The position numbers and the translations under genes were made by a program. Shown here piece by piece: positions 24,488-39,856 of a stretch of 64,000 nt of DNA. The stretch spans positions 1 through 64,000 of the forward strand of contig NZ_UWYY01000001.1 of NCBI RefSeq assembly GCF_900608595.1, in the 5' to 3' direction. Each line of letters starts with the position of its first letter. The stretch's first letter is position 1. Source of the DNA: Promicromonospora panici. Its GTDB lineage: Bacteria > Actinomycetota > Actinomycetes > Actinomycetales > Cellulomonadaceae. The notes beneath the pieces are model-generated. The model was not told the DNA's origin. It did no database searches and saw nothing but the letters and a program-made list of their open reading frames with translations.

Positions 24488-26041
24488 ATGGCCGATGCTC
24501 TACCCCCGTCCGACGTCCGGCAGCCCGACGAGCCGCAGCCCGCCGCGCCCCGTTCCGCCGAGGGCGTGGCCGGGCGCGTGCTGAACTGGTTCGGCGTCGA
24601 CTCCGACTGGGAGCGAGTGCCCGCAGGACGTGTCGCATACCGCCGGGACCTGCTGCTGGGGGCGTGCTTCGGGGTGTTCGCGGCGATCTCGGTAGAGCTG
24701 GGCCGCAGCATGGGCATCTTCGAAGAGACCCCGGAGCCGCTGTGGCTCATCATGCTGCTGGCGGTGGTCAGCATGCTCCCGCTGGCCTGGCGCCGCCGCT
24801 ACCCCCTGGTCTCGCTCGTGCTCGTCTATGGGATGTGGCTCGCGATCGGTCTGACCATCAGTGCCATCACGGTGCTCATGCCGATGCAGATCCTGTACTT
24901 CGTCGCCCTCTTCACGGCGGTGGCCTGGGCGCGCGACCGGCGGGCGATGCTGATCGTGGTCAGCGCCTGCGTGCTGATGATGTTCACGTGGCTCATCTGG
25001 ATGTTCGCCGTGCAGCAGGGCATCGAGACGCTCCTCGAGGAGTTTCCGACCCCTGCGGACTGGCCAGGCCTGATGGAGCCGTATCTCGCGAACGCCGTCT
25101 ACCAGCTCATCATGAACATCGCGTTCTTCGGCGGCGCCGTCGTGGCGGGCCAGATGCAGTGGAACGCAGCCCGGCGGCGGGAGCAGCTCGCTGACCAGGC
25201 GGTCACCATCGAGAAGCAGGCCGCGGCCCTCACGGACCAGGCCATCGTCGCCGAGCGGGTGCGGATCGCACGCGAGCTGCACGACGTCGTCGCGCACCAC
25301 GTGTCGGTGATCGGGATCCAGGCGGCCGCCGCCCGCCGCGTCCTGGGCCGCGACCCGGCCCTGGCCGCGGAGGCGCTCGTCACCATCGAACGCGAGTCGC
25401 GCGAGGGTGTCGCGCAGATGCGGAACCTGGTGGGCACGCTCCGCTCGGTGCCCGACGGCGGCGCCTCGGGCGCAGAGGCCGGGCCGGACGGCGCCTCCCG
25501 GGCGCCCGAGCCAGGGCTCGCGGACCTCCCGGCGCTCACCGCCGCCGACTACGACGGCCTCGACACCACCTTCCACCAGGTCGAGGAGCCGGCGGGCGCC
25601 GCAGCCGACGTGCCCGCCCCCATGGGCCTGAGCCTCTACCGCACCGCCCAGGAGGCGATGGCGAACGTGCGCAAGCACTCGACCGCCCGCTCGGCAACGG
25701 TCACGCTCCGCGTGGTGCGCGACGCCGCGATATCGGCGGGTGACCAGTTCGCACACGGCTTCGCCGAGGTGGAGGTGCTCGACGACGGTCGCGCCCGCCA
25801 CGGGACGTCCGGCTCCGGACTCGGACTGCTCGGGATCCGGGAACGCGCGGTGACCCACCAGGGCGTCGTCGAGATCGGGCCGCGGGCGACCGGCGGGTTC
25901 CGGGTCAGGATGCGGCTGCCGCTGCCCGCACCCGACCCGGGCCCGGTCCCCGCCGTCTCTCCGGCGGAACAGGCGGCGGAGGGCCGGCCGGAGGCCCCCG
26001 CCCAGACCCTGTCGGCCATCCGTCCGGAGGCGGCTCGATGA
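24488..26041 (+). CDS. Sensor histidine kinase, NarL/DesK-type (HisKA_3)
   Basis: 517-residue membrane kinase with about five or six hydrophobic segments between residues 52 and 225, then a coiled coil and the HisKA_3 dimerisation helix ARELHDVVAHHVSVIGIQ, in which His265 is the phosphorylation site. A C-terminal ATPase domain follows, with NVRKHS (N box) and GSGLGLLGIRER. It lacks a sizeable extracytoplasmic sensor, so the stimulus may be sensed in the membrane. Start ATG 24488 is 6 nt behind a TACTCT hexamer. Its stop overlaps the response regulator start by ATGA. Confidence 0.92.
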   Translation: MADALPPSDVRQPDEPQPAAPRSAEGVAGRVLNWFGVDSDWERVPAGRVAYRRDLLLGACFGVFAAISVELGRSMGIFEETPEPLWLIMLLAVVSMLPLAWRRRYPLVSLVLVYGMWLAIGLTISAITVLMPMQILYFVALFTAVAWARDRRAMLIVVSACVLMMFTWLIWMFAVQQGIETLLEEFPTPADWPGLMEPYLANAVYQLIMNIAFFGGAVVAGQMQWNAARRREQLADQAVTIEKQAAALTDQAIVAERVRIARELHDVVAHHVSVIGIQAAAARRVLGRDPALAAEALVTIERESREGVAQMRNLVGTLRSVPDGGASGAEAGPDGASRAPEPGLADLPALTAADYDGLDTTFHQVEEPAGAAADVPAPMGLSLYRTAQEAMANVRKHSTARSATVTLRVVRDAAISAGDQFAHGFAEVEVLDDGRARHGTSGSGLGLLGIRERAVTHQGVVEIGPRATGGFRVRMRLPLPAPDPGPVPAVSPAEQAAEGRPEAPAQTLSAIRPEAAR

Positions 26042-26730
26042 CGCGCGTGCTGCTGGTCGACGACCAGGCGTTGGTGCGCTCCGGCTTCTCGCTCATCCTG
26101 TCGGTGGAGGACGACTTCGAGGTCGTCGGCGAGGCCGGTGACGGCGCCGCCGCGATCGAGCTGACCCGCGAGCTCCGGCCCGACATCGTGCTCATGGACG
26201 TCCAGATGCCCGTCATGGACGGCATCGAGGCCACCCGCCGGATCGTCGCCGAGGACCTCGCGAAGGTGCTGGTGCTGACGACGTTCGACCACGACGAGTA
26301 CGTGTTCGACGGCCTCGCGGCCGGCGCGTCCGGGTTCCTCCTGAAGAACTCGGACGCGGAGCACCTCGTGGAGGCGGTGCGGACGCTGGCGGCCGGGCAC
26401 GCGCTGCTCGCACCACAGATCACCCGGCGGGTAATCGAGCAGATGGTGGCGGGGGAGCGGCTGTCGTCGGCCGAGCGGAACCCGCTGGTCGAGCCCGTCG
26501 AGACCCGGCCCGCTCAGGACCCGGCCCCCGCCGGACTCGCCCTCCTCACACCGCGCGAGCGCGAAGTGTTCGAGCTCGTGGGCACGGGGCTGTCGAACGC
26601 GGAGATCGCCTCGACCCTGTACCTCGGCGAGGCCACGGTGAAGACGCACGTCTCGAACGTGCTGTCCAAGCTGCACCTGCGAGACCGCGTCCAAGCGGTG
26701 GTGCTCGCGCACAGGGTGGGCCTCGTCTGA
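26038..26730 (+). CDS. NarL/LuxR-type response regulator (pair of the upstream kinase)
   Basis: 230 residues. A receiver domain (LLVDDQALVRSGF, phospho-Asp54 in VLMDVQMP, Lys in LLKNSD) and a C-terminal LuxR helix-turn-helix (LTPREREVFELVGTGLSNAEIASTLYLGEATVKTHVSNVL, about 165-205). The linker is unusually long and contains LVEPVETR (residue 149 onward), encoded by a 19-bp repeat also present in the kinase gene at 62.6 kb. Coupled to the kinase by a 4-nt overlap. Confidence 0.93.
   Translation: MTRVLLVDDQALVRSGFSLILSVEDDFEVVGEAGDGAAAIELTRELRPDIVLMDVQMPVMDGIEATRRIVAEDLAKVLVLTTFDHDEYVFDGLAAGASGFLLKNSDAEHLVEAVRTLAAGHALLAPQITRRVIEQMVAGERLSSAERNPLVEPVETRPAQDPAPAGLALLTPREREVFELVGTGLSNAEIASTLYLGEATVKTHVSNVLSKLHLRDRVQAVVLAHRVGLV
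26487..26505. repeat. 19-bp intragenic repeat, copy in the response-regulator linker
   Basis: GGTCGAGCCCGTCGAGACC. It matches the reverse complement of 62595-62613 at 18 of 19 positions and is read in the same frame in both genes (VEPVET). Confidence 0.8.
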
Positions 26731-27820: not shown

Positions 27821-28076
27821 GCTTAGCTCCCCCTGCGGGTTCAGATACTGCCTTGTGCCCATCTGCGGCGACGCTTCGGTCTTCGTGATCGAAACTCGAA
27901 ACATCCCCCGGAGCGCAGTGCTCATCTCTCCGTGGACGGACTGTCGAACCATTCAGCGCCGCTGTTGTTCGTGCGGCGTTCCGGACGGGACAATACGTGG
28001 CAGAACACCATTGGCAACCGGAACCTGTAATACCAGGTCAACCCCGGTGGGGGTGCGGAGGGCAAGCCGGAGTGGT

Positions 28077-28234: not shown

Positions 28235-29179
28235 ATGAGCGATCTGGAGGTGCGGGATCTCACCCGCGTGTTCGTGTCGGGCGGCACACCCCGGCGAGCC
28301 GTGGACGGCGCGGGCTTCACGGCGTCGTCGGGCCTGCTCACGGGGTTCGTGGGGAGCAACGGAGCGGGCAAGACGACGACCATGCGGATGATCATGGGTG
28401 TCCTGGCGATCACGAGCGGCGAGGTGCTGTTCGACGGCGCCCCGGTCACCCGGCAGGACCGCCGCGAGTTCGGGTACATGCCCGAGGAGCGCGGCCTCTA
28501 CCCCAAGCAGCCCGTGCTGGACCAGCTCGTCTACCTGGCGCGGCTGCGGGGCATCGCCGCGTCGGCCGCGCGCCGCGAGGTGCTGGAGCACCTCGACCGG
28601 CTGGGGCTCGCGGACCGGGCGAAGGAGCACGTGGAGAAGCTGTCGCTCGGTAACCAGCAGCGCGTGCAGATCGTCGCGGCGGTCATGGGGCAGCCCAAGG
28701 CGCTCGTCCTCGACGAGCCGTTCAGCGGCCTCGACCCGGCGGCCGTGGACGCCATGGTCGACCTGCTGCGCGAGCACACGCGGCGCGGGGTGCCCGTGCT
28801 GTTCAGCTCGCACCAGCTCGACCTCGTGGAGCGCCTGTGCGAGCGGCTGGTCATCCTCGGCGGGGGCAGGGTCCTCGCGAACGGCAGCCCCGACGAGCTG
28901 CGCGCCCAGGGCGTGACCCGGCACCGGCTCATCCTGTCGGGCGACGCGGGTTTCGTCCGCGGAGTACCGGGTGTCCTGGCCGTGGACGTGGACGGCCCGT
29001 CCGCGCTGGTCGAGGTGCGGGACGACGGCGCGGCCACCCGCCTCCTGTCGGCCGCCCTGGAGCGGGGCGCCGTCCACGAGTTCTCCCCCGTCCGGCCGAC
29101 GCTGGCCCAGATCTACCGGGAGATGACCGCGCAAGCCGGAGCGGAGCCGCAGGCTCACGCGGACGAGGAGACGGTGTGA
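28235..29179 (+). CDS. ABC transporter ATPase (NatA-type exporter)
   Basis: 314 residues. Walker A GSNGAGKTTT, a Q-loop region, signature LSLGNQQR, Walker B ALVLDEPFSGLD and the switch His in FSSHQLD are all present. The C-terminal domain of about 90 residues (residues 225-314) is typical of NatA/EcsA-like exporters. The start is leaderless-looking (TAGCGT, 7 nt). It overlaps or nearly abuts the permease gene and precedes the propeller array on the same strand, so it may be co-transcribed with the first propeller gene. Confidence 0.93.
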   Translation: MSDLEVRDLTRVFVSGGTPRRAVDGAGFTASSGLLTGFVGSNGAGKTTTMRMIMGVLAITSGEVLFDGAPVTRQDRREFGYMPEERGLYPKQPVLDQLVYLARLRGIAASAARREVLEHLDRLGLADRAKEHVEKLSLGNQQRVQIVAAVMGQPKALVLDEPFSGLDPAAVDAMVDLLREHTRRGVPVLFSSHQLDLVERLCERLVILGGGRVLANGSPDELRAQGVTRHRLILSGDAGFVRGVPGVLAVDVDGPSALVEVRDDGAATRLLSAALERGAVHEFSPVRPTLAQIYREMTAQAGAEPQAHADEETV

Positions 29180-29199: not shown

Positions 29200-30414
29200 G
29201 TGCGCAACGCCTGGATGGTGGTGGCGACCCGCGAGATCGTGGTGCGGGCGCTCAACAAGGGCTTCCTGATCGGCCTCGCGGTCACCATCGCGATGATCGG
29301 CGGGCTGATCGGCTTCACGTCCTACATGGAGAGCCGCACCCAGTCGTTCGACGTCGCGGTCGTCGCCGGGGACGAGTCGGCGGCGACCGCGCTGGAGTCG
29401 GCGGCCGACGGGCGGGGCGCCGCGTCGGCGTCCGACGACCGGGTAGAGCTCACCGTGGTGCGGGTGGACGACGCGGCGGCAGCCGAGGCCGCCCTCGAGG
29501 ACGAGACCGCCGACGCGTGGCTCAGCTCCGGCGCCGGCGTGACCGGCACCGACGGCTGGACCCTGTCCGGCTGGCGGGACCCCGACTCGGACCTCGCCCA
29601 GCTCATCGAGACCACGGTGCGCGACCAGGTCCTGGCGGGCCACGCGTCCGACGCCGGGACCACCATGTCCGCCCTCACCGCGGGCAGCGAGGTCGAGACC
29701 GAACGGCTCGACGGCAACCCGGTGGACCCGCAGATCGTGTTCATGGCCGGGTTCGTGCTCGCGTTCCTGTTCTTCATAGGCGCCGTCGGGTCGGGCGCGA
29801 TGATCGCGGGCAGCGTGATCGAGGAGAAGCAGTCCCGGCTCGTCGAGATCATCGCGACCGCCGTGCCGCTGCGGCAGCTGCTGGCGGGCAAGATCATCGG
29901 CAGCTCGGCGATCGCACTGGGACAGAACCTGTTGCTCGCCGGAGTCGGGCTCGTCGGGGTCTCGTTCACCGACCTCTCGGCGATCCTGCCCGCGATGACG
30001 GCCACGATGGTCTGGTTCGTCGTCTTCTTCACCGTCGGGTTCGTCGCGGTGGCAGCCCTGTACGCGGTCGCCGGCTCCCTCGCGTCGCGCACGGAGGACC
30101 TCCAGTACACGACCAGCCCCCTGATGATGCTGCTCATGGGCGTGTACATCGTGACGTTCTCGGCAGACGGCGTGCTCGAACGCGTCCTGTCGTACATCCC
30201 GCCGGCGTCGATCGTGTCGATGCCCGTGCGGGTGCTCAACGGGGACGCCCTGTGGTGGGAGCCGCTCGTGTCGCTCCTCGTCCTCGTGGCGGCCACGGTC
30301 GGGGCCGTGCTTCTCAGCGAGCGCGCCTACCGCGGGGCGCTCATGCAGACGGGCGGCCGGGTTACCTGGAGGACTGCCATGGCCGGAGAGCGGGGCACTA
30401 CCCTCGGGGCGTGA
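29200..30414 (+). CDS. ABC-2 type permease (NatB-like)
   Basis: 404 residues. A first membrane helix (about 22-43), a large extracytoplasmic domain (about 45-180) and five or six C-terminal helices including SGAMIAGSVIEEKQSRLVEIIATAVPLRQLLAGKI, the conserved cytoplasmic turn of NatB-type sodium or drug exporters. Two starts have good sites: GTG 29200 (AGAGGAG, 29187-29193) and GTG 29176, which overlaps the ATPase stop. I prefer 29200 because it gives the family N-terminus. Its stop overlaps the start of the first propeller gene (GTGA). Confidence 0.9.
   Translation: MRNAWMVVATREIVVRALNKGFLIGLAVTIAMIGGLIGFTSYMESRTQSFDVAVVAGDESAATALESAADGRGAASASDDRVELTVVRVDDAAAAEAALEDETADAWLSSGAGVTGTDGWTLSGWRDPDSDLAQLIETTVRDQVLAGHASDAGTTMSALTAGSEVETERLDGNPVDPQIVFMAGFVLAFLFFIGAVGSGAMIAGSVIEEKQSRLVEIIATAVPLRQLLAGKIIGSSAIALGQNLLLAGVGLVGVSFTDLSAILPAMTATMVWFVVFFTVGFVAVAALYAVAGSLASRTEDLQYTTSPLMMLLMGVYIVTFSADGVLERVLSYIPPASIVSMPVRVLNGDALWWEPLVSLLVLVAATVGAVLLSERAYRGALMQTGGRVTWRTAMAGERGTTLGA
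30399..30404 (+). promoter_or_regulatory. -10 TACCCT for propeller gene 1
   Basis: Lies inside the last codons of the permease gene; 6-nt spacer to GTG 30411. Confidence 0.5.
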
Positions 30415-32165
30415 CCGAACGCACCCAGCACGATGCCACCGGGCCAAGGACCCCCGATCCCGAGAAGGTGCACACCTTCGACCTCATCGACGAGGTGCCC
30501 GGGGTGTCCGACAGCGCGCAGGGCCCGGACGGCGGCGGCGACGGCGACGCACCCGACCCCGAGCCCGCCCCGACCGAGGAGCCCGGCCCCCGCGAGCCCG
30601 GCCGGTTCGCGGTGGCGCTCGCGGGCGCCCGCTCCGCCGTCGGGCGGACGGCGCGGCGTGGTGCGGCGGCAGTCCGACGGCGGATCCCCGCGACGCGCCG
30701 CGGCAAGGCGATGCTGGCCGTGGGGACGGCGGCCGTCGTCGTGCTGGTGGTCGCGGCCGGGGTGCTGGTGGACACGCAGCTCCGGCACCGGGCGCTCCTC
30801 GCCACGCCCGGCGGCGTGCGGAGCCTGGCGGAGAAGCCCGCCGAGCAGTGGTCGATCGGCCTCGACGACCCGATCTCGGCGACCCTGGTCCGGATGCCGG
30901 GTGTGCTCGCGGTCGCCGGCGGGGGAGAGGTCCGCGGTGTGGACCCCGCCTCGGGCGAGGTGCGGTGGACCGCCGACGTCGGGGATGACGCGAGCTGCGG
31001 CCCGGTGGCGGGCCTGGGCAGCGCGGGGCCGGGCGCCGTGGAACCGGCGGACCCCCTGGTCTGTGTCAGCCAGGCTGGTGCGGGCAAGCAGGAGGTCACG
31101 GTGATCGACCCGGACGGTGCCGCGAAGACCCGCGAGGTCGACTCCGGCGTGGTCGTCCCGGCCGCCGGCGGTGGCCTGGTCTCCTTCGAGCTGGCCGGCG
31201 GCGATCAGGAGCGGCGGCCCGTGGTGGTGGACAAGCTCGGCGTCCCTCACCTCCCGAAGGGCTTCGTCGGGCCCGACCTCGTGGTGCGCACCGAGGACGC
31301 CCGGACCGGCGCGGAGCGCTGGAGCGAGACCGTCCCGTTCGCTGCCCCGCGGCCCGAGAGCTGCGTCAGCTACGACCAGAACGAACCGATGCTGGACGTC
31401 GCCGGGGCGCTCGCCTGGGACGTGCGGGACGCCGTCGTGGAGGTGCAGGGTTGCGGTGTCTCGGCGGCGTTCCTGCGCGACGGCACGCGGCTCGACGACC
31501 CGAAAGACCCGGACGACCCGCCGGCCGACGGCATGGACGTCGCGTCGTTCGCGCCGCTGCCGGACGGCGGCTGGGTCGAGCCGGGCAGCGGGTCGGCCGA
31601 CTCGGGCGTGCCCAACGATGTGGTGCACCTGCAGGACGGCGGCAGCGTGACCCTCGACGGCCAGGTCCTCGTGCCGTGGGTCTCGGACGGCCGCGACCCA
31701 GGGCTGGTGCTGGAGCGGGTCGGTCCGGGGACGGAGGCCAGGTCCACCGACGAGGGCGACGCCGGCGCGCGCCTCTGGACGGCCCCCCGCCTCGCGGCCA
31801 CGACGCTGCTGGCCCGCGTGTCCGGCACCGCCGTCGTCGTGGACGAGGAGGGCGCGGTACGCGCCATCGACCTCGGCACGGGTGCCGACCGCTGGACCCT
31901 CGACCCGGAGGTCCTCTCGCTCGGCGACATGGCGTGGGTCGCGCAGTCGCTCGTCTTCGGGGCCTACACGGACGGTGACACCCTGCTGCTTCCGGTGTCC
32001 GCGAGCCCGGACAGCGAGGCGTCGGGCCTGCGGCTGCTCGCGATCGACCTCCGCGACGGCTCCGTGCGCTGGGAGATCGAGCAGGAGACCCCGTACACCC
32101 AGCTCGTCAGCGTCGACGGATACCTGGCGCAGATCACGCAGCAGGGGGTCGTGGGCCTCGGCTGA
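30411..32165 (+). CDS. Membrane-anchored PQQ-like beta-propeller protein 1
   Basis: 584 residues. A cytoplasmic N-terminal tail holds HTFDLIDEV (Phe23-Asp24-Leu25) and a long Pro/Glu-rich stretch, then one membrane helix at about 101-123 and an extracytoplasmic propeller with blades such as VRGVDPASGEVRWTADV and VRAIDLGTGADRWTLD. Conserved Cys positions of the array seen here are SCGP, LVCVSQ, ESC and GCGV; the CxxxxC pair of paralogs 3-5 is absent. Ends GVVGLG. It is the most divergent member and is fused by GTGA overlap to the ABC permease. No PQQ-dehydrogenase catalytic residues are evident. Function unknown. Confidence 0.8.
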   Translation: MTERTQHDATGPRTPDPEKVHTFDLIDEVPGVSDSAQGPDGGGDGDAPDPEPAPTEEPGPREPGRFAVALAGARSAVGRTARRGAAAVRRRIPATRRGKAMLAVGTAAVVVLVVAAGVLVDTQLRHRALLATPGGVRSLAEKPAEQWSIGLDDPISATLVRMPGVLAVAGGGEVRGVDPASGEVRWTADVGDDASCGPVAGLGSAGPGAVEPADPLVCVSQAGAGKQEVTVIDPDGAAKTREVDSGVVVPAAGGGLVSFELAGGDQERRPVVVDKLGVPHLPKGFVGPDLVVRTEDARTGAERWSETVPFAAPRPESCVSYDQNEPMLDVAGALAWDVRDAVVEVQGCGVSAAFLRDGTRLDDPKDPDDPPADGMDVASFAPLPDGGWVEPGSGSADSGVPNDVVHLQDGGSVTLDGQVLVPWVSDGRDPGLVLERVGPGTEARSTDEGDAGARLWTAPRLAATTLLARVSGTAVVVDEEGAVRAIDLGTGADRWTLDPEVLSLGDMAWVAQSLVFGAYTDGDTLLLPVSASPDSEASGLRLLAIDLRDGSVRWEIEQETPYTQLVSVDGYLAQITQQGVVGLG

Positions 32166-32236
32166 CAGCCGATCCCGCCTCGTCGGCAGAGCGCCCTCGT
32201 CGGCAGGGCGCCCCCTGAGCTCGCAGGTCACGCGGG

Positions 32237-32242
32237 TAGGCT
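32237..32242 (+). promoter_or_regulatory. -10 TAGGCT for propeller gene 2
   Basis: 6-nt spacer to ATG 32249. Confidence 0.55.
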
Positions 32243-32248
32243 CCCGCC

Positions 32249-33847
32249 ATGCCGCGGCCGGACAAAAAGGAATCCGTCGTCTTCGACCTGGTCGAGGACA
32301 ACGGGCCGGCTGATGCCGCCGACGGCGGGCCCGACGCCGCCGGCACCGAACCCTCGCTCCTGTCCCGGCTGCCCAGGCCGTCGCGACGCACCTGGGTGAT
32401 CGCGGCCGCGGTGGTCGCCGCCGTGGCGGTCACGCTGGTCTCGGTCGACCTGGTGCGGGACCACCGCCGGGCGGAGCTGATGCGGACCTCGTCCGTGGGC
32501 GTGGCGTCGCTCGCCGATCCGCCCGAGCCGACCTGGACCGTGCCGTTCGACGTCCCCACCGGACGCGCCTCGGACGCCCATCTGGGCCAGCAGCTCGTGG
32601 TCATGGACGGGCTGCTGGTGCTCCCGCCGACGAGCACACCGGGCTACCCGGCCGACTCCGCCACCGGGGTGTTCGAGGCCCCGCCCCGGTTCACGGGCGT
32701 CGTGGCCGTCGACCCGGGCTCGGGCGAGGTGGCGTGGCGAATCCCCGTGGACGAGAACCCTGAGTGCGGCCCGTCGGGTTACGACGCGTCGATCTCGACC
32801 GAGGTGCTCGTCTGCGTGCACGGCCCGGACGTCGACCGGCAGGTGCTGACGATCACGCCCGACGGCACCACCCGGTCGCGGCCCCTCGACCTGGTGGAGG
32901 GCGAGCGTGTGTTCCCCGGGCCCGACGGCATGGTCGTCCGGACCGTGCGGACCGGAGACCCCATCGGATACCTGGCGTGCGACGAGGCGGGGAACTGCCC
33001 GCCCCGGATCCTGGACGAGGGTCGCAGCCTGCGCGTCGCCGCGGAGGACGCCGGGACGGGCGCCGAGCGCTGGACGAGCGTCATCGAGTTCGACCCGACG
33101 ATCTCGGACAGCTGCCAGACATGGCCCGCGGACATCGACTCCACGCCGGACGAACCGACGTACGACCCGGACCTGACCACGGTCAGCGTAGGAGCCGAGA
33201 GCGTCGTCGTCGCCGGGTGCGGCCTGGCGGCGACGCTGTCGGTGGACGGGACGCGGCTGGACCTGGCCGGCGATCTCCTCGATCCGGCACAGGTCTGGGT
33301 CACGGAGCTGGGCTCGGGCCGCTTCGCGGTGGAGGGCGACGCGGCGCAGACCGTCGTCGTGAACGCTGACGGGAAGATCCTGCGTACCGTGCAGGGCCGG
33401 ATGAGCTCCGGCCCCGCCGCGCCCGACGCACCCGACGACCTGTGGTTCGTCACGCGGACGTCCGGCGTCGGGTTCGCCGCCGTCCGCGAGGACGGTTCGG
33501 AGGCCTGGACGGCGCTGCAGGAGTCGCGTGTGGCGCTCGCCGCGCGGGACGTGGTGGTCGTGAACCGGGAGAACCGGCTCCTGGGTCTGGACCGGGCGAC
33601 CGGCGCGAAGATGTGGGGCTGGGCCGACGACGACCCGCGCGGCCTGGCCAACTTCCGGACGCTCACCGACGGGGAGGCCATCGCGGTGCAGCTCCTGCCG
33701 CAGGACGGCGTCGGCGAGGGCGTGCTGGTCGCCATCGACCTGGGGACGGGAGAGGAGCTCTGGGAGGTCCCGCTGACGGGCGCCGTCGTCGCCGTCGACG
33801 GGCAGCTGGTCGAATTCACCTCGGACGGCGTGCGCGGCCTGGGGTGA
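32249..33847 (+). CDS. Membrane-anchored PQQ-like beta-propeller protein 2
   Basis: 532 residues with the shortest cytoplasmic tail of the array (VVFDLVEDN at 10-18, Phe12-Asp13-Leu14), a membrane helix near 50-68, then the propeller. Blade motifs include VAVDPGSGEVAWRIPV and LLGLDRATGAKMWGW. Cysteines: ECGP, LVCVHG, LACDEAGNC, DSC and AGCG. Ends GVRGLG. Separate leaderless-type promoter after an 83-nt gap, so it can be expressed apart from gene 1. Confidence 0.82.
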   Translation: MPRPDKKESVVFDLVEDNGPADAADGGPDAAGTEPSLLSRLPRPSRRTWVIAAAVVAAVAVTLVSVDLVRDHRRAELMRTSSVGVASLADPPEPTWTVPFDVPTGRASDAHLGQQLVVMDGLLVLPPTSTPGYPADSATGVFEAPPRFTGVVAVDPGSGEVAWRIPVDENPECGPSGYDASISTEVLVCVHGPDVDRQVLTITPDGTTRSRPLDLVEGERVFPGPDGMVVRTVRTGDPIGYLACDEAGNCPPRILDEGRSLRVAAEDAGTGAERWTSVIEFDPTISDSCQTWPADIDSTPDEPTYDPDLTTVSVGAESVVVAGCGLAATLSVDGTRLDLAGDLLDPAQVWVTELGSGRFAVEGDAAQTVVVNADGKILRTVQGRMSSGPAAPDAPDDLWFVTRTSGVGFAAVREDGSEAWTALQESRVALAARDVVVVNRENRLLGLDRATGAKMWGWADDDPRGLANFRTLTDGEAIAVQLLPQDGVGEGVLVAIDLGTGEELWEVPLTGAVVAVDGQLVEFTSDGVRGLG

Positions 33848-33885
33848 GGTGGCCGCGAGGGGCTGATCCGCGCGACGCCCGGCAC

Positions 33886-33891
33886 TACGCT
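33886..33891 (+). promoter_or_regulatory. -10 TACGCT for propeller gene 3
   Basis: 7-nt spacer to ATG 33899. Confidence 0.6.
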
Positions 33892-33898
33892 CGGCCGC

Positions 33899-35542
33899 AT
33901 GGCGCGCGACCCGGATGTGGGCGACGCGTACGTCTTCGACCTGGTCGAGGACGACGCGCCCACCGGTGACGCGCCGGAGGTCCAGGACGGCTCGGCGAGC
34001 CCGGTCATGCCGGGCCGGAAGCGGCGGCTCACCGCCCAGGTCGCGGGGATCCTGGCGATAGTGCTCGGCACGGGCATCGCCGTCGACGGCGCGCTGGACC
34101 ACCAGCGGATGGAGCGGATGCGCGACATCCCTGGGGGAGTGGCCGACCTGTCGTCACCCCTGGCGGAGACGTGGGCGTGGAGCAACGCCGTCGGCCCGGG
34201 CGAGAGCACCACCGACGTGGCGGTGCTCGGGGACGTGCTGGCGGTGGAGTCGGACGACGGGCTGGTGGCGCTCGACCCGGCCACGGGCGACGTGGCGTGG
34301 ACCGTCCCGCTCCGCGCGGAGGCGGACTGCGGCCCGATGGTCCCCGCGGCGTGGCTGGACCCGACGACGGAGCTGCTGGTCTGCCTCCAGGGAACGGGCC
34401 GCGACCGGGAGGTCGTCGCGGTGGGACCCGACGGTCCGACGTCGGCCCCGCGGGCCCTCGACGCCGCGGACGCGCGCCGGTACGGGGTGCCCCATACCGG
34501 TCCGGACGGGACCGTGCTGCGTGCGAGACGGGTGGGGCCGGCGTCGGCGGTCGACCTGAGCGGCGCCGTGTGCACGAGCGCCGACGAGTGCACGGGGATG
34601 ATCACGGAGGGCCGGGACCTCGTGCTCCGGGCCGAGGACGCGGCGACCGGCGCGGAGCGCTGGACCGTCACCGTCCCGTTCCGGACGGTGGACGCCACGC
34701 AGTGCACCCGCACGTACGGCGCGTCGTGGGGCAGCTCGGAGACCCGCCTGGTGCTGAGCGGTCAGCTCGCCCCCGATGCCTTCGGCGCGCGCGTCACCGC
34801 CGACCTCATCGACCTCAGCGGCTGCGGCGTGCAGGCTGCCGTCACGCCCGACGGGACGGTGCTCGGCGCCGAGCTCGAACCCGGCACGAGCCTCGTGATG
34901 AGCCTCCGCGAGGGGGGCTACGCCGGCACGAGCTTCGACGGCGCGGCCGGCGCCACCCTGTACGCCGCCGACGGCGACGTCGTCGGCGAGATCACCGGGT
35001 ACCCGCGCCGGCCCCGGGCGACCGACCAGTCCGAGCCGGCGACGGTGCTCGGGGTGGACGAGCCCGGGCGCCGTCTGCGGGCCTACGCCGCGGACGGCAC
35101 GCCGCGCTGGGACGTCACGCTGCAGTCGGGCGGACAGGACTTCCTCGCGCAGGTGGGCGACACGGCGGTGATCACGACGGGGGCGGGGAAGGTGCGCGGC
35201 CTGGATCTCGCCACCGGCGAGGAGCGGTGGGTCTGGGACGGCTCGGACCCGTCGGCCGAGGACGACGTCGGGTACTTCGGGAGCGCCCACGTCGTCCAGG
35301 CCTTCACCGACGGAGAGGTCGTCCTGCTGCTGACGGAGGGCGAGACCGGCAGCACTCAGGGCCTCGTCGCGCTCGACGCGTCCTCGGGCGCCGTGGTCTG
35401 GGAGCGTGCCGGCGGCGGAACCGTCACCTCGTTCGACCCGACGGACCGCGGCCTCGTCGAGCAGGGGATCGTCGGAGGCCTCGTGGCGGTGGACGGGAAC
35501 CTGCTGGAAGTCACCCCGCGCGGCGTCCGTGGCCTCGGATGA
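33899..35542 (+). CDS. Membrane-anchored PQQ-like beta-propeller protein 3
   Basis: 547 residues. The tail MARDPDVGDAYVFDLVEDDA is near-identical in plan to paralogs 4 and 5. Membrane helix at about 46-62, followed by the conserved juxtamembrane MERMRDIPGGVADLSSPLAE. Blades such as LVALDPATGDVAWTVPL and VRGLDLATGEERWVWDG. Cysteine set DCGP, LVCLQG, VCTSADECTG, QCTR, GCGV; ends GVRGLG. Members 3-5 form the most similar subgroup, consistent with recent tandem duplication including the promoter. Confidence 0.82.
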   Translation: MARDPDVGDAYVFDLVEDDAPTGDAPEVQDGSASPVMPGRKRRLTAQVAGILAIVLGTGIAVDGALDHQRMERMRDIPGGVADLSSPLAETWAWSNAVGPGESTTDVAVLGDVLAVESDDGLVALDPATGDVAWTVPLRAEADCGPMVPAAWLDPTTELLVCLQGTGRDREVVAVGPDGPTSAPRALDAADARRYGVPHTGPDGTVLRARRVGPASAVDLSGAVCTSADECTGMITEGRDLVLRAEDAATGAERWTVTVPFRTVDATQCTRTYGASWGSSETRLVLSGQLAPDAFGARVTADLIDLSGCGVQAAVTPDGTVLGAELEPGTSLVMSLREGGYAGTSFDGAAGATLYAADGDVVGEITGYPRRPRATDQSEPATVLGVDEPGRRLRAYAADGTPRWDVTLQSGGQDFLAQVGDTAVITTGAGKVRGLDLATGEERWVWDGSDPSAEDDVGYFGSAHVVQAFTDGEVVLLLTEGETGSTQGLVALDASSGAVVWERAGGGTVTSFDPTDRGLVEQGIVGGLVAVDGNLLEVTPRGVRGLG

Positions 35543-35561
35543 AACCGACACGCACCCGGCA

Positions 35562-35567
35562 TACGCT
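35562..35567 (+). promoter_or_regulatory. -10 TACGCT for propeller gene 4
   Basis: 7-nt spacer to ATG 35575, same hexamer as for gene 3. Confidence 0.6.
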
Positions 35568-35574
35568 CGACCGC

Positions 35575-37260
35575 ATGGCACGTGATCCGGACGAGGGTGG
35601 TGCGTTCGTCTTCGACCTCGTCGACGACGACGTGGCCGATCTCGAGGCGCCGCTCACTCCGTCCGGCGCGGACGGCCCGTCCGGCGCGGACGGCGAGGGT
35701 GATCCCGACGGCGTCGACCTGGCGCCCGGTGAGGTGCTGTCGGGCACGCTGGGCCGGGGGCTGCGTGTGCTCGCGCCGGTCCTGGCGGTCCTGGCGGTCG
35801 TGGTGGGCACGGGTTTCGCGGTCGACGGCGTGCGGGACGGAGCGCGCATGGAGCGGATGCGCGACGTCCACGGGGGCGTCGTCGACGTGTCCGCACCGCT
35901 CCGGGAGACGTGGGAGTGGGACGGCCGGGTCGGTCCCGTCGGGGTCGCGGACGAGGGGCGGTGGAACGAGGTGGCCGTGCTCGGCGACCTGCTCGCGTTC
36001 CAGTCGGGCGAAGACCTCGTGGCCCTGGATCCCGCGACGGGTGACGAGGCGTGGCGGCTCCGGCTCGGCGAGGACCCGGACTGCGGGCCGCAGGGCTCGG
36101 TGGGCTGGGCCGAGGCCGTGACGTCGCAGCTGGTCTGCCTGGCGGACGCCGGACCGGACCGGGTGGCGGTGGTGGTCGGGCCGGACGGTGTCGCCTCCGC
36201 CGAACGCACCCTCGGCGCGGCGGACGCACGCCGGTACGGCGCGGCCCGTCCCGGGCCGGACGGGACCGTGCTGCGCGCCGAGCGCGTGGGTCCCGAGCCG
36301 CCGTCGGGCGCGAACGACGGCGTGTGCACCAGCCCGGGTGAATGCACCGGCACGGTCGAGGTGGGCCGGGCCGTGCGGATCCGTTCCGAGGACGCGGTCA
36401 CGGGCGAGGAACGCTGGCGCGTGACCGTTCCCTTCCGGTCCACGCGCGCCGACCAGTGCACCAACTGGTACGCCACGCACTGGGACGGGTCGAGCAACAT
36501 GATGGACCTGGACGACATGGTCGACGACGACGGCTTCGGCGCACGGATCACCGCCGACGTGGTGCAGCTGTACGGCTGCGGCGTCGAGTCGGCGGTCACC
36601 GGCGACGGGGTGCTGCTCGGCGCGGAGAGCGAACCGGGGACACGCGGCGTGGAGAGCCTTCGCACCGGCGGGTACATGCTGTACACCTTCGACGGCGCGG
36701 TCAGCAGCACCCTCTACGACGCCGACGGCGGTCTCGTCGGCGAGATCGACGGGTACGTGCTCGAACCGACCGCGGTCGACGGGTCGGAGCCGGAGACGCT
36801 CCTCGCCTCGGGGGCGTCGGGCCCGTCGGTGCGGTCCTACGCCCTGGACGGCACCTCGCGCTGGGACGACGCGGCCCCGGGGGAGATGCAGCTGTTCCTG
36901 GCGCAGGTGGGCGGGGCGGCGATCTTCCAGACCGGGGCGGGGCAGGTGCGCGCGCTGGACCTCGCGACGGGGACGGAACAGTGGACCTGGGACCCGGCGG
37001 AGCCCGACGAGGCGTACCCGAACGATCTGTACGTGACCCGGGCCTTCACCGACGGGCAGTTCGTGCTGCTGGTCGTCGAGACCTCGGCCGGCGGGAAAGG
37101 GCTGGTGGCGCTCGACGCGGTCTCCGGCGAGGTGGCCTGGGAGCAGCACGGCTTCGAAGTGAGCTCGTCCGACAAGGCCCTGGGACCCAGCTCGGGGCTG
37201 GTCGCCGTCGACGGCAACCTGCTGGAGGTCGCGCCGGGCGGCGTCCGCGGGCTCGGCTGA
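35575..37260 (+). CDS. Membrane-anchored PQQ-like beta-propeller protein 4
   Basis: 561 residues. Tail MARDPDEGGAFVFDLVDDDV, then a Ser/Gly/Asp-rich spacer with a short duplication (SGADGPSGADG), a membrane helix at about 64-82 and MERMRDVHGGVVDVSAPLRE. Blades include LVALDPATGDEAWRLRL and VRALDLATGTEQWTWDP. Cysteines DCGP, LVCLAD, VCTSPGECTG, QCTN, GCGV; ends GVRGLG. The frame is open far upstream, so the start was fixed by the tail shared with its neighbours and by the -10 hexamer. Confidence 0.82.
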   Translation: MARDPDEGGAFVFDLVDDDVADLEAPLTPSGADGPSGADGEGDPDGVDLAPGEVLSGTLGRGLRVLAPVLAVLAVVVGTGFAVDGVRDGARMERMRDVHGGVVDVSAPLRETWEWDGRVGPVGVADEGRWNEVAVLGDLLAFQSGEDLVALDPATGDEAWRLRLGEDPDCGPQGSVGWAEAVTSQLVCLADAGPDRVAVVVGPDGVASAERTLGAADARRYGAARPGPDGTVLRAERVGPEPPSGANDGVCTSPGECTGTVEVGRAVRIRSEDAVTGEERWRVTVPFRSTRADQCTNWYATHWDGSSNMMDLDDMVDDDGFGARITADVVQLYGCGVESAVTGDGVLLGAESEPGTRGVESLRTGGYMLYTFDGAVSSTLYDADGGLVGEIDGYVLEPTAVDGSEPETLLASGASGPSVRSYALDGTSRWDDAAPGEMQLFLAQVGGAAIFQTGAGQVRALDLATGTEQWTWDPAEPDEAYPNDLYVTRAFTDGQFVLLVVETSAGGKGLVALDAVSGEVAWEQHGFEVSSSDKALGPSSGLVAVDGNLLEVAPGGVRGLG

Positions 37261-37318
37261 GCGGATGGCAGGCCGGCGCCTGCGTCGCTTTTGGAGGAAA
37301 TGCGGGCCCGCGTGGGCA

Positions 37319-37324
37319 TACTCT
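37319..37324 (+). promoter_or_regulatory. -10 TACTCT for propeller gene 5
   Basis: 7-nt spacer to ATG 37332. Confidence 0.6.
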
Positions 37325-37331
37325 CAGCCGC

Positions 37332-39020
37332 ATGGCACGCGATCCGGGCGAGGGCGAGGCGTTCGTCTTCGACCTCGTCGACGACGACGGGGATGTGCCC
37401 ACGTCCCCGCTGGGCCCTGACGCCGGCGCGGAGGGTGACGTGGACGGCGTCGGGCCGGATGGCGCCGGGCTTGAGGCGGGCGGGCCGCTGCCTCACGGTG
37501 CGCTCGGCCTGAGGCTGCGCGCGCTGGCGCCGGTCGCGGCGGTGCTGGCCGTCGTCCTGGGCACGGGGTTCGCCGTCGACAGCATGCGGGACGCCGCGCG
37601 GACCGAGCGGATCCGCGAGGTGCCCGGCGGCGTCGTGGACGTGTCCGCGCCGCTCGAGGAGGCCTGGGCCTGGGAAGCGCCGATGGATGCCGCCGACGCC
37701 ATGGGGTGGTTCGGGGTAGCTGATCTCGAGGGCATGCTCGCCTTCCGCTCGGAGCAAGAGCTCATCGGGCTGGACCCGGCGTCGGGCGAGCGGGCGTGGT
37801 CCGTGCGGCTCCGCGAGGACTCGGAGTGCGGGCCGCTCGGCTACCCGGGTGGGACGGGGCTCGCGACGTCGGTCCTGGTCTGCGTCCAGGATGCGGGCGC
37901 GGCGCGGGAGGCCTTCACGGTAGGGCCGGACGGTGTCGCGTCGGAGCCCCGAGCGCTCGACACGGCGGACGACCGCCGCTACGGGAGGGCGCGGCCCGGC
38001 CCCGACGGGATGGTGCTGCGGGCCAAGCGGATCGGCCTCGAGTCCGCGATCGACGTGGGAGACGCCCGGTGCACGGAGACGACGGGGGAATGCAGCGGGA
38101 CCGTCGAGGCCGGGCGGGACCTCCAGCTCCGTGCGGAGGATGCGACCACCGGCGAGGAGCGCTGGAGCGTGACGATCCCGTTCCGGGCGACGGCCGCCCA
38201 GCAGTGCAACCCCTGGTTCGGTGAGCCGTGGAACGGGTGGGAGGACGTGCCTGCCGACGAGGCACTGGCCCCCGACGTGTTCGGTGCCTACTTCGGGACC
38301 GGGCTCATCGACCTGTGGGGCTGTGGCACGGCGGCTGCTGTGACCACCGGTGGTGCCCTGGTGAGGGTGCACGAAGAGGCAGGGCCGGCCACGGTGCTCA
38401 GCCTCGGCACCGCCCGGCATGCCGGGCAGGCGACGACCATGGCGGTGATCGAGTCCGGCGGTCCGCCGCGCACCATCCTGTTCGGGCCGGACGGCGACGT
38501 CGTCCGCGAGATTCCCGGGAGTGCGAGCGTTCCGCAGACCACCGACGAGGGCGAAGCGCTGACCCTGCTCGTGTCCGACGAGTCCGGATATGGCCTGCGT
38601 TCCTACGCGGCGACGGACGGGGCGGAACGCTGGAACGTCGACAGCGCGGGCAGCTCTTCGGGCTTCCTCGCGCAGGTGGCCGGCATCGCGGTGACCGCGA
38701 CCTGGACCGGGAGTGTCCGAGGGTTCGATCTCGCCACCGGTGCGGAGCAGTGGTCATGGGACATCGGCGAGGTCGAGGGCAGCTCGTCCTACGGGAGCGA
38801 GTACGCGGTCCAGGCGTTCACCGACGGCCGGTTCGTGCTTCTCGTGCTGCAGGGCGGGGACGGCACGATGGGGCTGGCGTCGCTCGACGCCACGTCGGGA
38901 GAGCTCGTCTGGGACGGGAGGCCGGCGGGCGACGAAAACCTGCCCCCGGGCGCCATGCTGCTCGCGGTCGGCGGTCGCCTGGTCGCCATGACATCGGAGG
39001 GCATCAGCGGGCTGGGCTGA
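37332..39020 (+). CDS. Membrane-anchored PQQ-like beta-propeller protein 5
   Basis: 562 residues. Tail MARDPGEGEAFVFDLVDDDG, membrane helix at about 65-84, juxtamembrane TERIREVPGGVVDVSAPLEE. Blades LIGLDPASGERAWSVRL and VRGFDLATGAEQWSWDI. Cysteines ECGP, LVCVQD, RCTETTGECSG, QCNP, GCGT; ends GISGLG. It is the last of the array; a 50-nt gap separates it from the endonuclease IV gene, which has its own leaderless-type promoter. Confidence 0.82.
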   Translation: MARDPGEGEAFVFDLVDDDGDVPTSPLGPDAGAEGDVDGVGPDGAGLEAGGPLPHGALGLRLRALAPVAAVLAVVLGTGFAVDSMRDAARTERIREVPGGVVDVSAPLEEAWAWEAPMDAADAMGWFGVADLEGMLAFRSEQELIGLDPASGERAWSVRLREDSECGPLGYPGGTGLATSVLVCVQDAGAAREAFTVGPDGVASEPRALDTADDRRYGRARPGPDGMVLRAKRIGLESAIDVGDARCTETTGECSGTVEAGRDLQLRAEDATTGEERWSVTIPFRATAAQQCNPWFGEPWNGWEDVPADEALAPDVFGAYFGTGLIDLWGCGTAAAVTTGGALVRVHEEAGPATVLSLGTARHAGQATTMAVIESGGPPRTILFGPDGDVVREIPGSASVPQTTDEGEALTLLVSDESGYGLRSYAATDGAERWNVDSAGSSSGFLAQVAGIAVTATWTGSVRGFDLATGAEQWSWDIGEVEGSSSYGSEYAVQAFTDGRFVLLVLQGGDGTMGLASLDATSGELVWDGRPAGDENLPPGAMLLAVGGRLVAMTSEGISGLG

Positions 39021-39070: not shown

Positions 39071-39856
39071 ATGGTGAAGATCGGCGCGCACGTGGACCTG
39101 ACCGACGCGATCGGTGCGGCGAAGACGCTCGGCGCGGACACGGTGCAGGTGTTCCTCAGCGACCCCCAGGCCTGGAAGGTCCCGGACCTCCCGTACGAGG
39201 GCGGCGCGGAGGCGCTCCGGGCCGACGCCGCCGCGGCCGGCATCGACCTCTACGTGCACGCGCCGTACGTCATCAACGTGGCGTCCACCAACAACCGCAT
39301 CCGCATCCCGAGCCGCAAGCTGCTGCAGCAGATCATGGACGGCGCCGAAGCGATCGGCGCCCAGGGCGTGGTGGTGCACGGCGGGCACGTGACCGCCAAG
39401 GACGAGCCGGCCAAGGGCTTCGACAACTGGCGCAAGGCGATCGACGCCCTGGAGACCGACGTCCCGGTGCTCATCGAGAACACGGCGGGCGGCGACTACT
39501 CCATGTCGCGCCGCCTGGAGCGGATCGAAGGGCTGTGGGCGGCGGTCACCACGGCGAACGGCGGGGACAACGTCGGGTTCACCCTCGACACGTGCCACGC
39601 CTGGGCCAGTGGGTTCGACCTCGCGACGGCCGTCGACGACATCCGTGCGATCACGGGCCGCATCGACCTGGTGCACGCGAACGACTCGCGCGACGCCGCC
39701 GGGTCCGGCGCCGACCGGCACATCAACTTCGGCAAGGGCATGATCCCCGAGGAGCTGCTGGTGGGCGTGATCGCTGCGGCGGACGCCCCGGTCATCTGTG
39801 AGACCAAGGGCGACATGGCGCCGGACATCGCGTGGCTGCGGGAGCGGCTGGGCTGA
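39071..39856 (+). CDS. nfo: Deoxyribonuclease IV (AP endonuclease, Nfo-type)
   Basis: 261-residue TIM-barrel enzyme that incises DNA 5' of abasic sites in base excision repair. All motifs that carry the three zinc ligands are visible: GAHV at the N-terminus, HAPYVIN, VVHGGH, IENTAGG, LDTCHAWASG, VHANDSRDAAGSGADRH and ICET. Length is normal for the short bacterial form. Followed 34 nt later by an NAD-dependent oxidoreductase gene with no functional link that I can see. Confidence 0.93.
   Translation: MVKIGAHVDLTDAIGAAKTLGADTVQVFLSDPQAWKVPDLPYEGGAEALRADAAAAGIDLYVHAPYVINVASTNNRIRIPSRKLLQQIMDGAEAIGAQGVVVHGGHVTAKDEPAKGFDNWRKAIDALETDVPVLIENTAGGDYSMSRRLERIEGLWAAVTTANGGDNVGFTLDTCHAWASGFDLATAVDDIRAITGRIDLVHANDSRDAAGSGADRHINFGKGMIPEELLVGVIAAADAPVICETKGDMAPDIAWLRERLG

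What the first reader, a model, noticed from the sequence alone, without database searches (positions are those of the whole stretch)
30411..39020. Array of five tandem membrane-anchored beta-propeller paralogs
Five consecutive same-strand genes (584, 532, 547, 561 and 562 aa) share one layout: a short acidic cytoplasmic tail, one membrane helix, a juxtamembrane PGGV.D(L/V)S.PL block, an extracytoplasmic PQQ-like propeller, a recurring cysteine pattern (CGP, LVC, GCG in all; C-x5/6-C in 3-5) and a C-terminus ending G-x-x-GLG directly at the stop. Such expansion next to an ABC exporter suggests a surface system with interchangeable members, perhaps cell-envelope sensors or assembly factors (BamB-like propellers are scaffolds). 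I know of no described role.
Basis: partly seen in the sequence, partly recalled or inferred. Interest (0 to 1): 0.8.

Follow-up and report, generated by a model that had tools for sequence, protein, structure and literature searches.

The report
Variable propeller receptors sharing cytoplasmic motif
An actinomycete carries a row of five fast-changing, membrane-anchored propeller proteins that differ outside the cell but share one small motif inside it, which suggests a set of interchangeable surface receptors or scaffolds with one common internal partner.

Summary
The array is real: five tandem genes, 30411-39020, the only profile matches in this Promicromonospora-type genome. Each encodes an acidic tail, one membrane helix and a PQQ_2-type beta-propeller; two were modelled, and I read both models as nine-bladed, not proven. 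They fail the tests run for BamB, Rv3212 and PQQ dehydrogenases. (2) 54 of 57 scored genus starts have a -10-like TANNNT box 12-13 nt upstream, so probably separate, leaderless genes. (3) Propellers diverge fast (dN/dS 0.33-0.81 in five species pairs, neighbours 0.06-0.36), mostly on one face, though synonymous change is raised too. An ABC exporter lies alongside in four genera. Best reading: non-catalytic receptors or adaptors with variable outside faces and one shared inside partner. Partner and ligand are unknown; an Rv3035-like envelope scaffold is the main rival.

The parts
24488..26041 (+). sensor histidine kinase (HisKA_3, DUF7134, HATPase_c), neighbour
   Evidence: Pfam; synteny
26038..26730 (+). 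NarL/LuxR-type response regulator, neighbour
   Evidence: Pfam; synteny
28235..29179 (+). ABC exporter ATPase (ABC_tran, DrrA1-3_C)
   Evidence: Pfam
29200..30414 (+). ABC-2 permease (ABC2_membrane_3, NatB-like); its stop codon overlaps the start of P1
   Evidence: Pfam; sequence; family search
30399..30404 (+). -10-like box TACCCT, 12 nt before the P1 start
30411..32165 (+). P1, 584 aa membrane-anchored propeller; older slot with relatives in g3 and g15; lowest dN/dS of the array members in 3 of 5 species pairs
30477..30488 (+). cytoplasmic motif of P1 (FDLI, residues 23-26)
32237..32242 (+). -10-like box TAGGCT before P2
32249..33847 (+). P2, 532 aa membrane-anchored propeller; second slot, next to a g15 pair in the tree
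32282..32293 (+). cytoplasmic motif of P2 (FDLV, residues 12-15)
33886..33891 (+). -10-like box TACGCT before P3
33899..35542 (+). P3, 547 aa membrane-anchored propeller; AlphaFold2 model pLDDT 83.9, pTM 0.81
33935..33946 (+). cytoplasmic motif of P3 (FDLV, residues 13-16)
34016..34123 (+). predicted membrane/juxtamembrane helix of P3 (residues 40-75)
35562..35567 (+). -10-like box TACGCT before P4
35575..37260 (+). P4, 561 aa membrane-anchored propeller
35611..35622 (+). cytoplasmic motif of P4 (FDLV)
37319..37324 (+). -10-like box TACTCT before P5
37332..39020 (+). P5, 562 aa membrane-anchored propeller
37368..37379 (+). cytoplasmic motif of P5 (FDLV)
39071..39856 (+). deoxyribonuclease IV (nfo), downstream border of the array; not thought to be part of the system
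   Evidence: NCBIfam PRK01060.1-3, 377.4 bits against cut-off 244; synteny

Best explanation
A lineage-specific family of non-catalytic surface receptors or adaptors. Each protein sits in the membrane by one helix with its N-terminus inside. Outside is a disulphide-pinned, PQQ_2-type propeller (perhaps nine-bladed) whose one face varies quickly and presumably binds different envelope or external partners. Inside is a disordered acidic tail whose main conserved element, around F[DE]L[VI]x[DE], presumably docks every member onto the same cytoplasmic partner. Members are transcribed separately, so any can be added, lost or tuned. P1 is an older slot and may still work with the adjacent ABC exporter and two-component system. 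SHOWN from sequence: array, motif conservation, -10-like boxes, fast change concentrated in one set of loops, four conserved cysteines, linkage to the exporter in four genera. PREDICTED: propeller fold. INFERRED: blade number, topology, disulphides, leaderless transcription, docking, ligand binding, any joint function with the exporter.
For: Motif core in 96 of 109 non-redundant tails against 1.35 expected in shuffled tails, fuller form in 66 against 0.02. Within the five ortholog sets the 13 residues around F keep 68-92% identity, against 30-66% in the rest of the tail and 56-68% in the ectodomain. dN/dS of the propellers is 0.33-0.81 in five species pairs against 0.06-0.36 for neighbours. 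Loops b-c and d-a vary more than a-b and c-d in 5 of 5 slots, permutation p 0.0006-0.048; same direction with short loops only or clear blades only, where P3 loses significance, p 0.08 and 0.06. Four Cys in 42, 43, 43 and 43 of 43 diverse rows. A -10-like box at -12/-13 in 54 of 57 scored genus starts; the other 3 fit if the start is moved to a nearby start codon; against 28 of 175 other called genes. ABC exporter alongside in g1, g3, g9 and g15. Tree: P1 and P2 slots have relatives in g3/g15; P3-P5 fall in a genus-only clade of 35 rows.
Against: No ligand, partner or phenotype is known. Whole-gene dN/dS never exceeds 1. Synonymous divergence is also raised in the propellers in most pairs (G190-G192: dS 0.33-0.44 against 0.13-0.27 for neighbours), so drift, recombination or alignment error may explain part of the speed. 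In that pair P3 (0.34) does not exceed the permease (0.34) or the nuclease (0.36), and in a sixth pair, G187-G193, P1 is only 0.17. Loops b-c and d-a are commonly the more variable ones in propellers (recalled); no unrelated propeller was run as control. Strand boundaries were set by hand from DSSP without coordinates. The exporter link fails in five genera, in G196 (11 kb apart) and in G220 (another contig); the kinase and regulator were not seen in the two g15 loci. The motif expression was written after seeing the sequences.
Confidence: 0.4

Rival explanations
1. Envelope-assembly scaffolds, working like mycobacterial Rv3035 (with FecB and the arabinosyltransferase AftB) or BamB: the propeller holds together enzymes that build or modify the cell wall, and the five members serve different enzymes.
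For: Structural matches include BamB (P3 model: Z 15.2, 289 residues, rmsd 4.3) and Rv3035 (P1 model: Z 13.6, 311 residues, rmsd 5.7). PMC12802301 (passages read) reports that FecB co-precipitates AftB and the Rv3035 ortholog MMAR_1667, and that a frameshift mutant of the latter grows poorly; the authors could not co-purify tagged AftB with tagged FecB.
Against: A scaffold of core wall enzymes would be expected to evolve slowly; these evolve faster than nearly every neighbour compared and change in number between species. No clear wall-building enzyme among the 19 neighbouring proteins that I scanned with Pfam (a GH3 hydrolase lies near one g18 locus); most other neighbours in the fetched loci were not annotated.
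Confidence: 0.3
2. Accessory subunits of the adjacent ABC-exporter/two-component system only: P1 senses or gates export and the others are spares.
For: The permease stop codon overlaps the P1 start. In 31 of 38 genomes with a permease homologue at E<=1e-100 a propeller lies within 10 kb on the same contig; 5 could not be judged (contig breaks or unlisted positions) and 2 are not adjacent (counted by hand).
Against: Propellers occur without a close permease homologue in g6, g16, g17, g18 and g24, with the motif in g6, g17, g18 and g24 and only near variants of it in g16. In g6 pairs or triplets lie beside another ABC cassette, annotated as BPD_transp_2-type in L074.
Confidence: 0.15
3. Dispensable proteins under relaxed constraint: duplicates drifting, with no shared function.
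For: High dN/dS and raised dS; copy loss, for example three copies in G195.
Against: The tail motif and four cysteines stay conserved across genera at about 30% overall identity; most rows listed have no stop inside; scored copies keep a -10-like box.
Confidence: 0.12
4. Quinoprotein (PQQ-dependent) dehydrogenases.
For: Pfam PQQ and PQQ_2 hits.
Against: No adjacent Cys-Cys pair in any of 105 rows; NCBIfam PQQ enzyme models score at most 26.8 bits against cut-offs of 480 and more.
Confidence: 0.02

Closest known systems
BamB (outer-membrane assembly factor, PF13360 fold)
   Same: Same propeller superfamily; among the best natural structural matches of both models, tied in Z with other propellers such as 9xrl_C for P3
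   Different: BamB is an eight-bladed lipoprotein of Gram-negative outer membranes (recalled). Here: a membrane helix, a cytoplasmic motif, conserved cysteines, perhaps nine blades; TIGR03300 score at most 31.8 bits against a cut-off of 285.2
Mycobacterial Rv3035/MMAR_1667 (FecB-AftB complex)
   Same: Actinobacterial extracytoplasmic propeller held at the membrane; fold match to P1 Z 13.6
   Different: Predicted eight-bladed and possibly a lipoprotein, with a growth phenotype (PMC12802301, passages); not among the 60 PDB sequence hits shown (of 69) for the 43-row profile
Rv3212 family (NF050114)
   Same: Actinobacterial propeller family; weak similarity to P1, best stretch residues 101-187
   Different: Highest score 24.9 bits against a cut-off of 150; no match in this genome. 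Rv3212 appears in co-precipitation lists of FtsB and of Rv0954 (PMC6872210, PMC8093794, passages)
PknD-type receptor kinases (recalled)
   Same: Extracytoplasmic propeller, one membrane helix, cytoplasmic signalling part
   Different: No kinase domain; only a disordered tail with a short motif
Nine-bladed propellers: S. pombe eIF2A, designed Cake9
   Same: Nine four-stranded modules by my reading; Cake10 and Cake9 rank first for the P1 model and eIF2A (3wj9) is listed
   Different: Unrelated in function; eIF2A conserves its top face (PMC4125824, abstract and passages), here one face is the variable part; blade number here is not proven

Membership tests
PQQ_2 / BamB-like propeller superfamily (PF13360) | Profile match above the gathering score | tested here: met
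   All five 39.3-44.7 bits against 27.6
PQQ_2 / BamB-like propeller superfamily (PF13360) | Predicted beta-propeller fold | tested here: met
   Models of P3 and P1, pLDDT 83.9 and 82.2; top PDB matches are propellers; P2, P4 and P5 were not modelled
BamB orthologs (TIGR03300, PRK11138) | Score over the equivalog cut-off | tested here: not met
   At most 31.8 against 285.2 bits, and 17 against 423
PQQ-dependent dehydrogenases | Adjacent Cys-Cys pair (recalled as typical of the PQQ site) and model score over cut-off | tested here: not met
   No CC in 105 rows; scores far below cut-off
PQQ-dependent dehydrogenases | PQQ binding and activity | not testable with these tools
   Needs protein
Rv3212 family (NF050114) | Score over cut-off 150 bits | tested here: not met
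   24.9 bits at best; no match in the genome
PknD-type receptor kinases | Cytoplasmic kinase domain | tested here: not met
   No kinase family among Pfam hits up to E 10; tail largely under pLDDT 50 in both models
Nine-bladed propellers | Nine blades in one ring | tested here: inconclusive
   Nine four-stranded modules read by hand from the DSSP of two models. The P1 model aligns over more residues with Cake10, Cake9 and eIF2A (325, 323, 336) than with any BamB row shown (at most 296), but rmsd is 4.8-5.1 and other propellers also align widely (9xrl_C 339, 7t1y_B 319); for P3, Cake10 and 7t1y_B both align over 316. By profile, modules 1, 3, 6, 7 and 8 repeat (E down to 6e-9, though hhalign probabilities stay under 9%), module 5 at best E 0.01, modules 2, 4 and 9 not significantly. 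No coordinates to inspect
Rv3035-type scaffold | Complex with a lipoprotein and a glycosyltransferase | not testable with these tools
   Fold match only
Known anti-phage defence systems | Match to PADLOC models | tested here: not met
   0 families for P1-P5 at E<=0.001

The most novel reading that the evidence does not exclude
A bacterial receptor repertoire. One lineage of actinobacteria keeps a birth-and-death array of separately transcribed surface receptors whose nine-bladed ectodomains diversify on one face under ligand pressure (phage, toxin, competitor or glycan), while an unchanged N-terminal F[DE]L[VI]x[DE] motif plugs every one of them into the same unknown cytoplasmic signalling or transport partner. 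It would include a natural nine-bladed propeller family in bacteria.
Probability: 0.2. Interest if true: 0.75.

Novelty: new variant of a known kind. Interest (0 to 1): 0.5.

Why it matters
If the reading holds, bacteria can build receptor sets the way animals build receptor families: one inside plug, many outside faces. The short motif makes this directly testable, because one pull-down with a tail peptide should fish out the shared partner. A natural nine-bladed bacterial propeller would also be a structural rarity: in the titles, abstract starts and passages that two searches on 'nine-bladed' propellers showed me (16 and 6 papers listed; passages of three papers read), the examples were eukaryotic or designed; most of the listed papers were not opened.

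Tried and rejected
Dehydrogenase reading: rejected. Rv3212 membership: rejected. Defence system: no PADLOC match for P1-P5; the regulator and the ATPase gave only domain-level matches, not followed. Whole array as one operon: disfavoured by separate -10-like boxes, although readthrough is possible and there are no expression data.

Another protein with the tail motif as a clue to the partner: a DNA pattern of the motif found four array sites (P2-P5) and one other in the genome, with 0 for the reversed pattern. The other site is not at the N-terminus of a called protein. Among gene calls of the fetched loci, the non-propeller proteins with the looser motif in their first 40 residues were four FDVVVIGAG-type (FAD-type, recalled) starts and two others.

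The promoter pattern of P3-P5 is not unique: 11 sites in the genome with up to one mismatch, the three array sites included (P5's with one mismatch), against 0 for the reversed pattern. So a dedicated regulon is not shown.

PDB search by sequence with P3 alone: best E 1.5e-4, BamB. Paper searches: Promicromonospora with beta-propeller, 0 papers; PQQ-binding-like beta-propeller with actinobacteria, 1 paper, not opened; a five-term search, 8 papers, passages of one read and unrelated.

Limits. In the family and order searches only a few candidates per genome were scored (6, 4, 7 in most rows), so matches are lower bounds and distant relatives could be missed. Gene calls in fetched loci came from my own simple caller; part of the listing was cut from view and I used the compact map. 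Tail starts were chosen partly with the motif in view, which can favour its position but not its presence. For the tail count, loci before L048 were represented by a hand-picked part, propellers with a weak membrane helix were skipped, and of 123 tails 4 (no usable start or masked) and 10 (85% identical to another) were dropped. Of the 13 misses most carry near variants, and two look like wrong starts. In the identity table, pairs with little overlap were left out (55 of 78 kept for P1, 66 of 78 for P3 in the motif core). Rows under 400 aa were left out of the tree, which also carries a long-branch warning.

Full report
WHAT IS THERE. A profile of the five finds no further copy in the 6.58 Mb genome at E<=0.001, with all 72 first-look candidates scored. 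The nearest named records are Promicromonospora (L035, P. soli, 73% in the best segment).

ANATOMY. In the P3 model residues 1-38 are under pLDDT 50, then comes one helix (40-75) and a propeller to the last residue. P1 is alike with a longer tail and an extra helix before the membrane helix. Reading strands in order by hand gives nine modules of four strands in both models; the ninth is made of the C-terminal strands plus the strand that follows the membrane helix. VIA-align ranks the designed Cake10 and Cake9 first for P1 (Z 15.3 and 14.8; 325 and 323 residues aligned of 360 and 359; rmsd 4.8 and 5.1), then BamB (Z 14.2, 290 of 349, rmsd 4.3), and lists eIF2A 3wj9 (Z 12.4, 336 of 396); but propellers such as 9xrl_C (339 of 449) align as widely. 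For P3, BamB is first (Z 15.2, 289 of 349), tied with 9xrl_C (Z 15.1), and Cake10 has Z 14.2 with 316 of 360. Cake9 is described as nine-bladed, and its sequence as able to fold with eight or nine blades (PMC8458387, passages); eIF2A was reported in 2014 as the first nine-bladed propeller structure (PMC4125824, passages). I put about 0.65 on nine blades. Four cysteines are kept in 42, 43, 43 and 43 of 43 diverse rows: C144/C162 in blade 2 and C269/C309 around blade 4 of P3, so two disulphides are likely (inference).

THE CYTOPLASMIC MOTIF. In the acidic tail, [VTSAI]F[DE][LVIMF] occurs in 96 of 109 non-redundant tails against 1.35 expected from shuffling each tail 300 times. The tighter F[DE]L[VI]x[DE] occurs in 66 of 109 against 0.02. 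F is at residue 12-14 in 74 of the 96. Across orthologs of each slot the 13 residues around F keep 68-92% identity, while the linker keeps 30-66% and the ectodomain 56-68%. That is what a docking motif in a disordered tail looks like. The partner is unknown; since propellers with the motif occur in genera without a close relative of the neighbouring permease, it is probably not the exporter itself (inference).

TRANSCRIPTION. In 54 of 57 scored starts in the genus a TANNNT box begins 12 or 13 nt before the start codon; copies whose start lay beyond a contig end or in masked sequence were not scored. The remaining 3 (L052, L059, L061) fit if the start is moved to an adjacent ATG or an upstream GTG. 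The same position holds TANNNT in 28 of 175 other called genes and at 0.1% of 20,000 random positions; my crude gene starts may make 28 an undercount. Such spacing is what leaderless actinobacterial genes show (recalled). So each gene probably has its own start, including P1 inside the end of the permease gene and the dispersed single copies in L051 and L056.

EVOLUTION. The 13 genus genomes gave 3-6 matches each. In fetched arrays not broken by contig ends, 3-5 genes lie between the permease and nfo. The tree of 105 rows groups P1 orthologs (13 rows, 100), P2 orthologs (12 rows, 100) and P3 orthologs (13 rows, 99). P1 lies in an 18-row clade (98) with rows of g3 and g15, and P2 next to a g15 pair (92). 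P3-P5 and two dispersed singletons fall in a genus-only clade of 35 rows (100) (quick SH-aLRT support; the program warns of long branches). So P1 and P2 look older than the genus and P3-P5 look like expansions within it. dN/dS by Nei-Gojobori in five species pairs is 0.33-0.81 for the propellers, 0.23-0.36 for the permease and 0.06-0.36 for the other neighbours. In 4 of the 5 pairs every propeller exceeds every neighbour; in G190-G192 P3 (0.34) equals the permease and is below the nuclease (0.36). In a sixth pair, G187-G193, P1 is 0.17 and P2 0.44 against 0.09 for two neighbours. None exceeds 1. Synonymous divergence is higher in the propellers too in most pairs (for example G193-G192: 0.32-0.45 against 0.15-0.22), so selection on the protein is not the whole story.

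WHICH PART CHANGES. Using the strands of the P3 model, loops b-c and d-a, which lie on one face of a propeller (recalled geometry), are more variable than a-b and c-d in 5 of 5 slots (permutation of loop means: p 0.0026, 0.0006, 0.0482, 0.0016, 0.0066 for P1-P5). With loops of at most 7 residues P3 gives p 0.08 and the others stay at or under 0.02. With only the five clear blades P3 gives 0.06 and the others are under 0.01. No unrelated propeller was run as control, so part of this may be ordinary propeller behaviour.

NEIGHBOURHOOD. Upstream lie a histidine kinase, a response regulator, an ABC ATPase and an ABC-2 permease; downstream nfo, an epimerase-like gene, a nuclease and PEP carboxylase. 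Propellers lie beside the same ABC pair in fetched loci of g1, g3, g9 and g15; the kinase and regulator are seen in g1 and g9, the regulator in g3, and neither in the two g15 loci. A permease homologue at E<=1e-100 is found in 38 of 221 family genomes. By hand from the two listings, a propeller lies within 10 kb on the same contig in 31 of the 38 (11 of 13 in g1, 2 of 2 in g3, 14 of 16 in g9, 4 of 4 in g15). Five could not be judged (G184, G187, G144, G149, G197) and two are not adjacent (G196, about 11 kb; G220, another contig). Genera g6, g16, g17, g18 and g24 have propellers with no such permease. In g6, pairs or triplets lie next to another ABC cassette (BPD_transp_2 permeases, annotated in L074 only), with an S9 peptidase nearby in L074; in g17 (L076) an S9 peptidase follows directly.

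DISTRIBUTION. 140 of 221 genomes of the taxonomic family match at E<=1e-3, many of them weak PQQ-type matches; strong ones (E<=1e-30) are in a subset of genera. In a sample of the order, the five-row profile at E<=1e-18 matched 10 of 297 genomes, all in the window's own family, and P3 alone at 1e-15 matched 6 of 198, all in the same family. The phylum was not searched successfully. So the family was not seen outside one taxonomic family in what was searched, apart from two short partial matches in the named-genome scan; it is not shown to be absent elsewhere.

MECHANISM AND STATUS. I commit to receptors or adaptors with one inside plug and variable outside faces (0.40), with an Rv3035/BamB-like scaffold (0.30), an exporter accessory (0.15) and relaxed duplicates (0.12) as rivals. 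Shown: array, motif, boxes, rates, linkage. Predicted: fold of two members. Inferred: everything about partners, ligands, blade number and transcription start. As a kind, membrane-anchored propellers are known; the combination of family-wide tail motif, separate -10-like boxes, tandem turnover and one-faced variability was not met in the papers that my searches listed, which cover only open-licence PMC texts and most of which I did not open.

Noticed in passing
L051:5431-7107 and L056:5319-6974: Single dispersed copies of the P3-P5 clade in genomes G186 and G188, away from the array, each with its own TATGCT box 12 nt before the start.
   Followed up: partly
L071, L072, L074, L085 (genus g6) and L076 (g17): Pairs or triplets of related propellers beside a different ABC cassette (g6; BPD_transp_2 permeases annotated in L074) or before an S9 prolyl oligopeptidase (L076).
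   Followed up: partly
L055:17399-18688 (- strand) and L054:1565-2191: Genes whose start resembles HipA (recalled resemblance) lie near the ABC ATPase in two genus genomes; L054 is a scrambled scaffold.
   Followed up: no
27068-27952 (- strand): 294-aa ORF between the response regulator and the ABC ATPase with no Pfam or NCBIfam match at E<=0.001; may not be a gene.
   Followed up: no
nfo start at 39071: The downstream nfo gene also has a TANNNT box (TAGGGT) just before its ATG, so start-adjacent boxes are common here; 28 of 175 other called genes in the genus loci show one at the same spacing.
   Followed up: partly
genus loci, table: Synonymous divergence of the propeller genes is about twice that of their neighbours in several species pairs, which selection on the protein alone does not explain; recombination or weaker codon constraint are possible.
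   Followed up: no
L052, L053, L054 (genome G187): Fragmented, N-filled assembly with scrambled gene order at the array, a likely effect of near-repeat paralogs; not judged in the adjacency count.
   Followed up: yes
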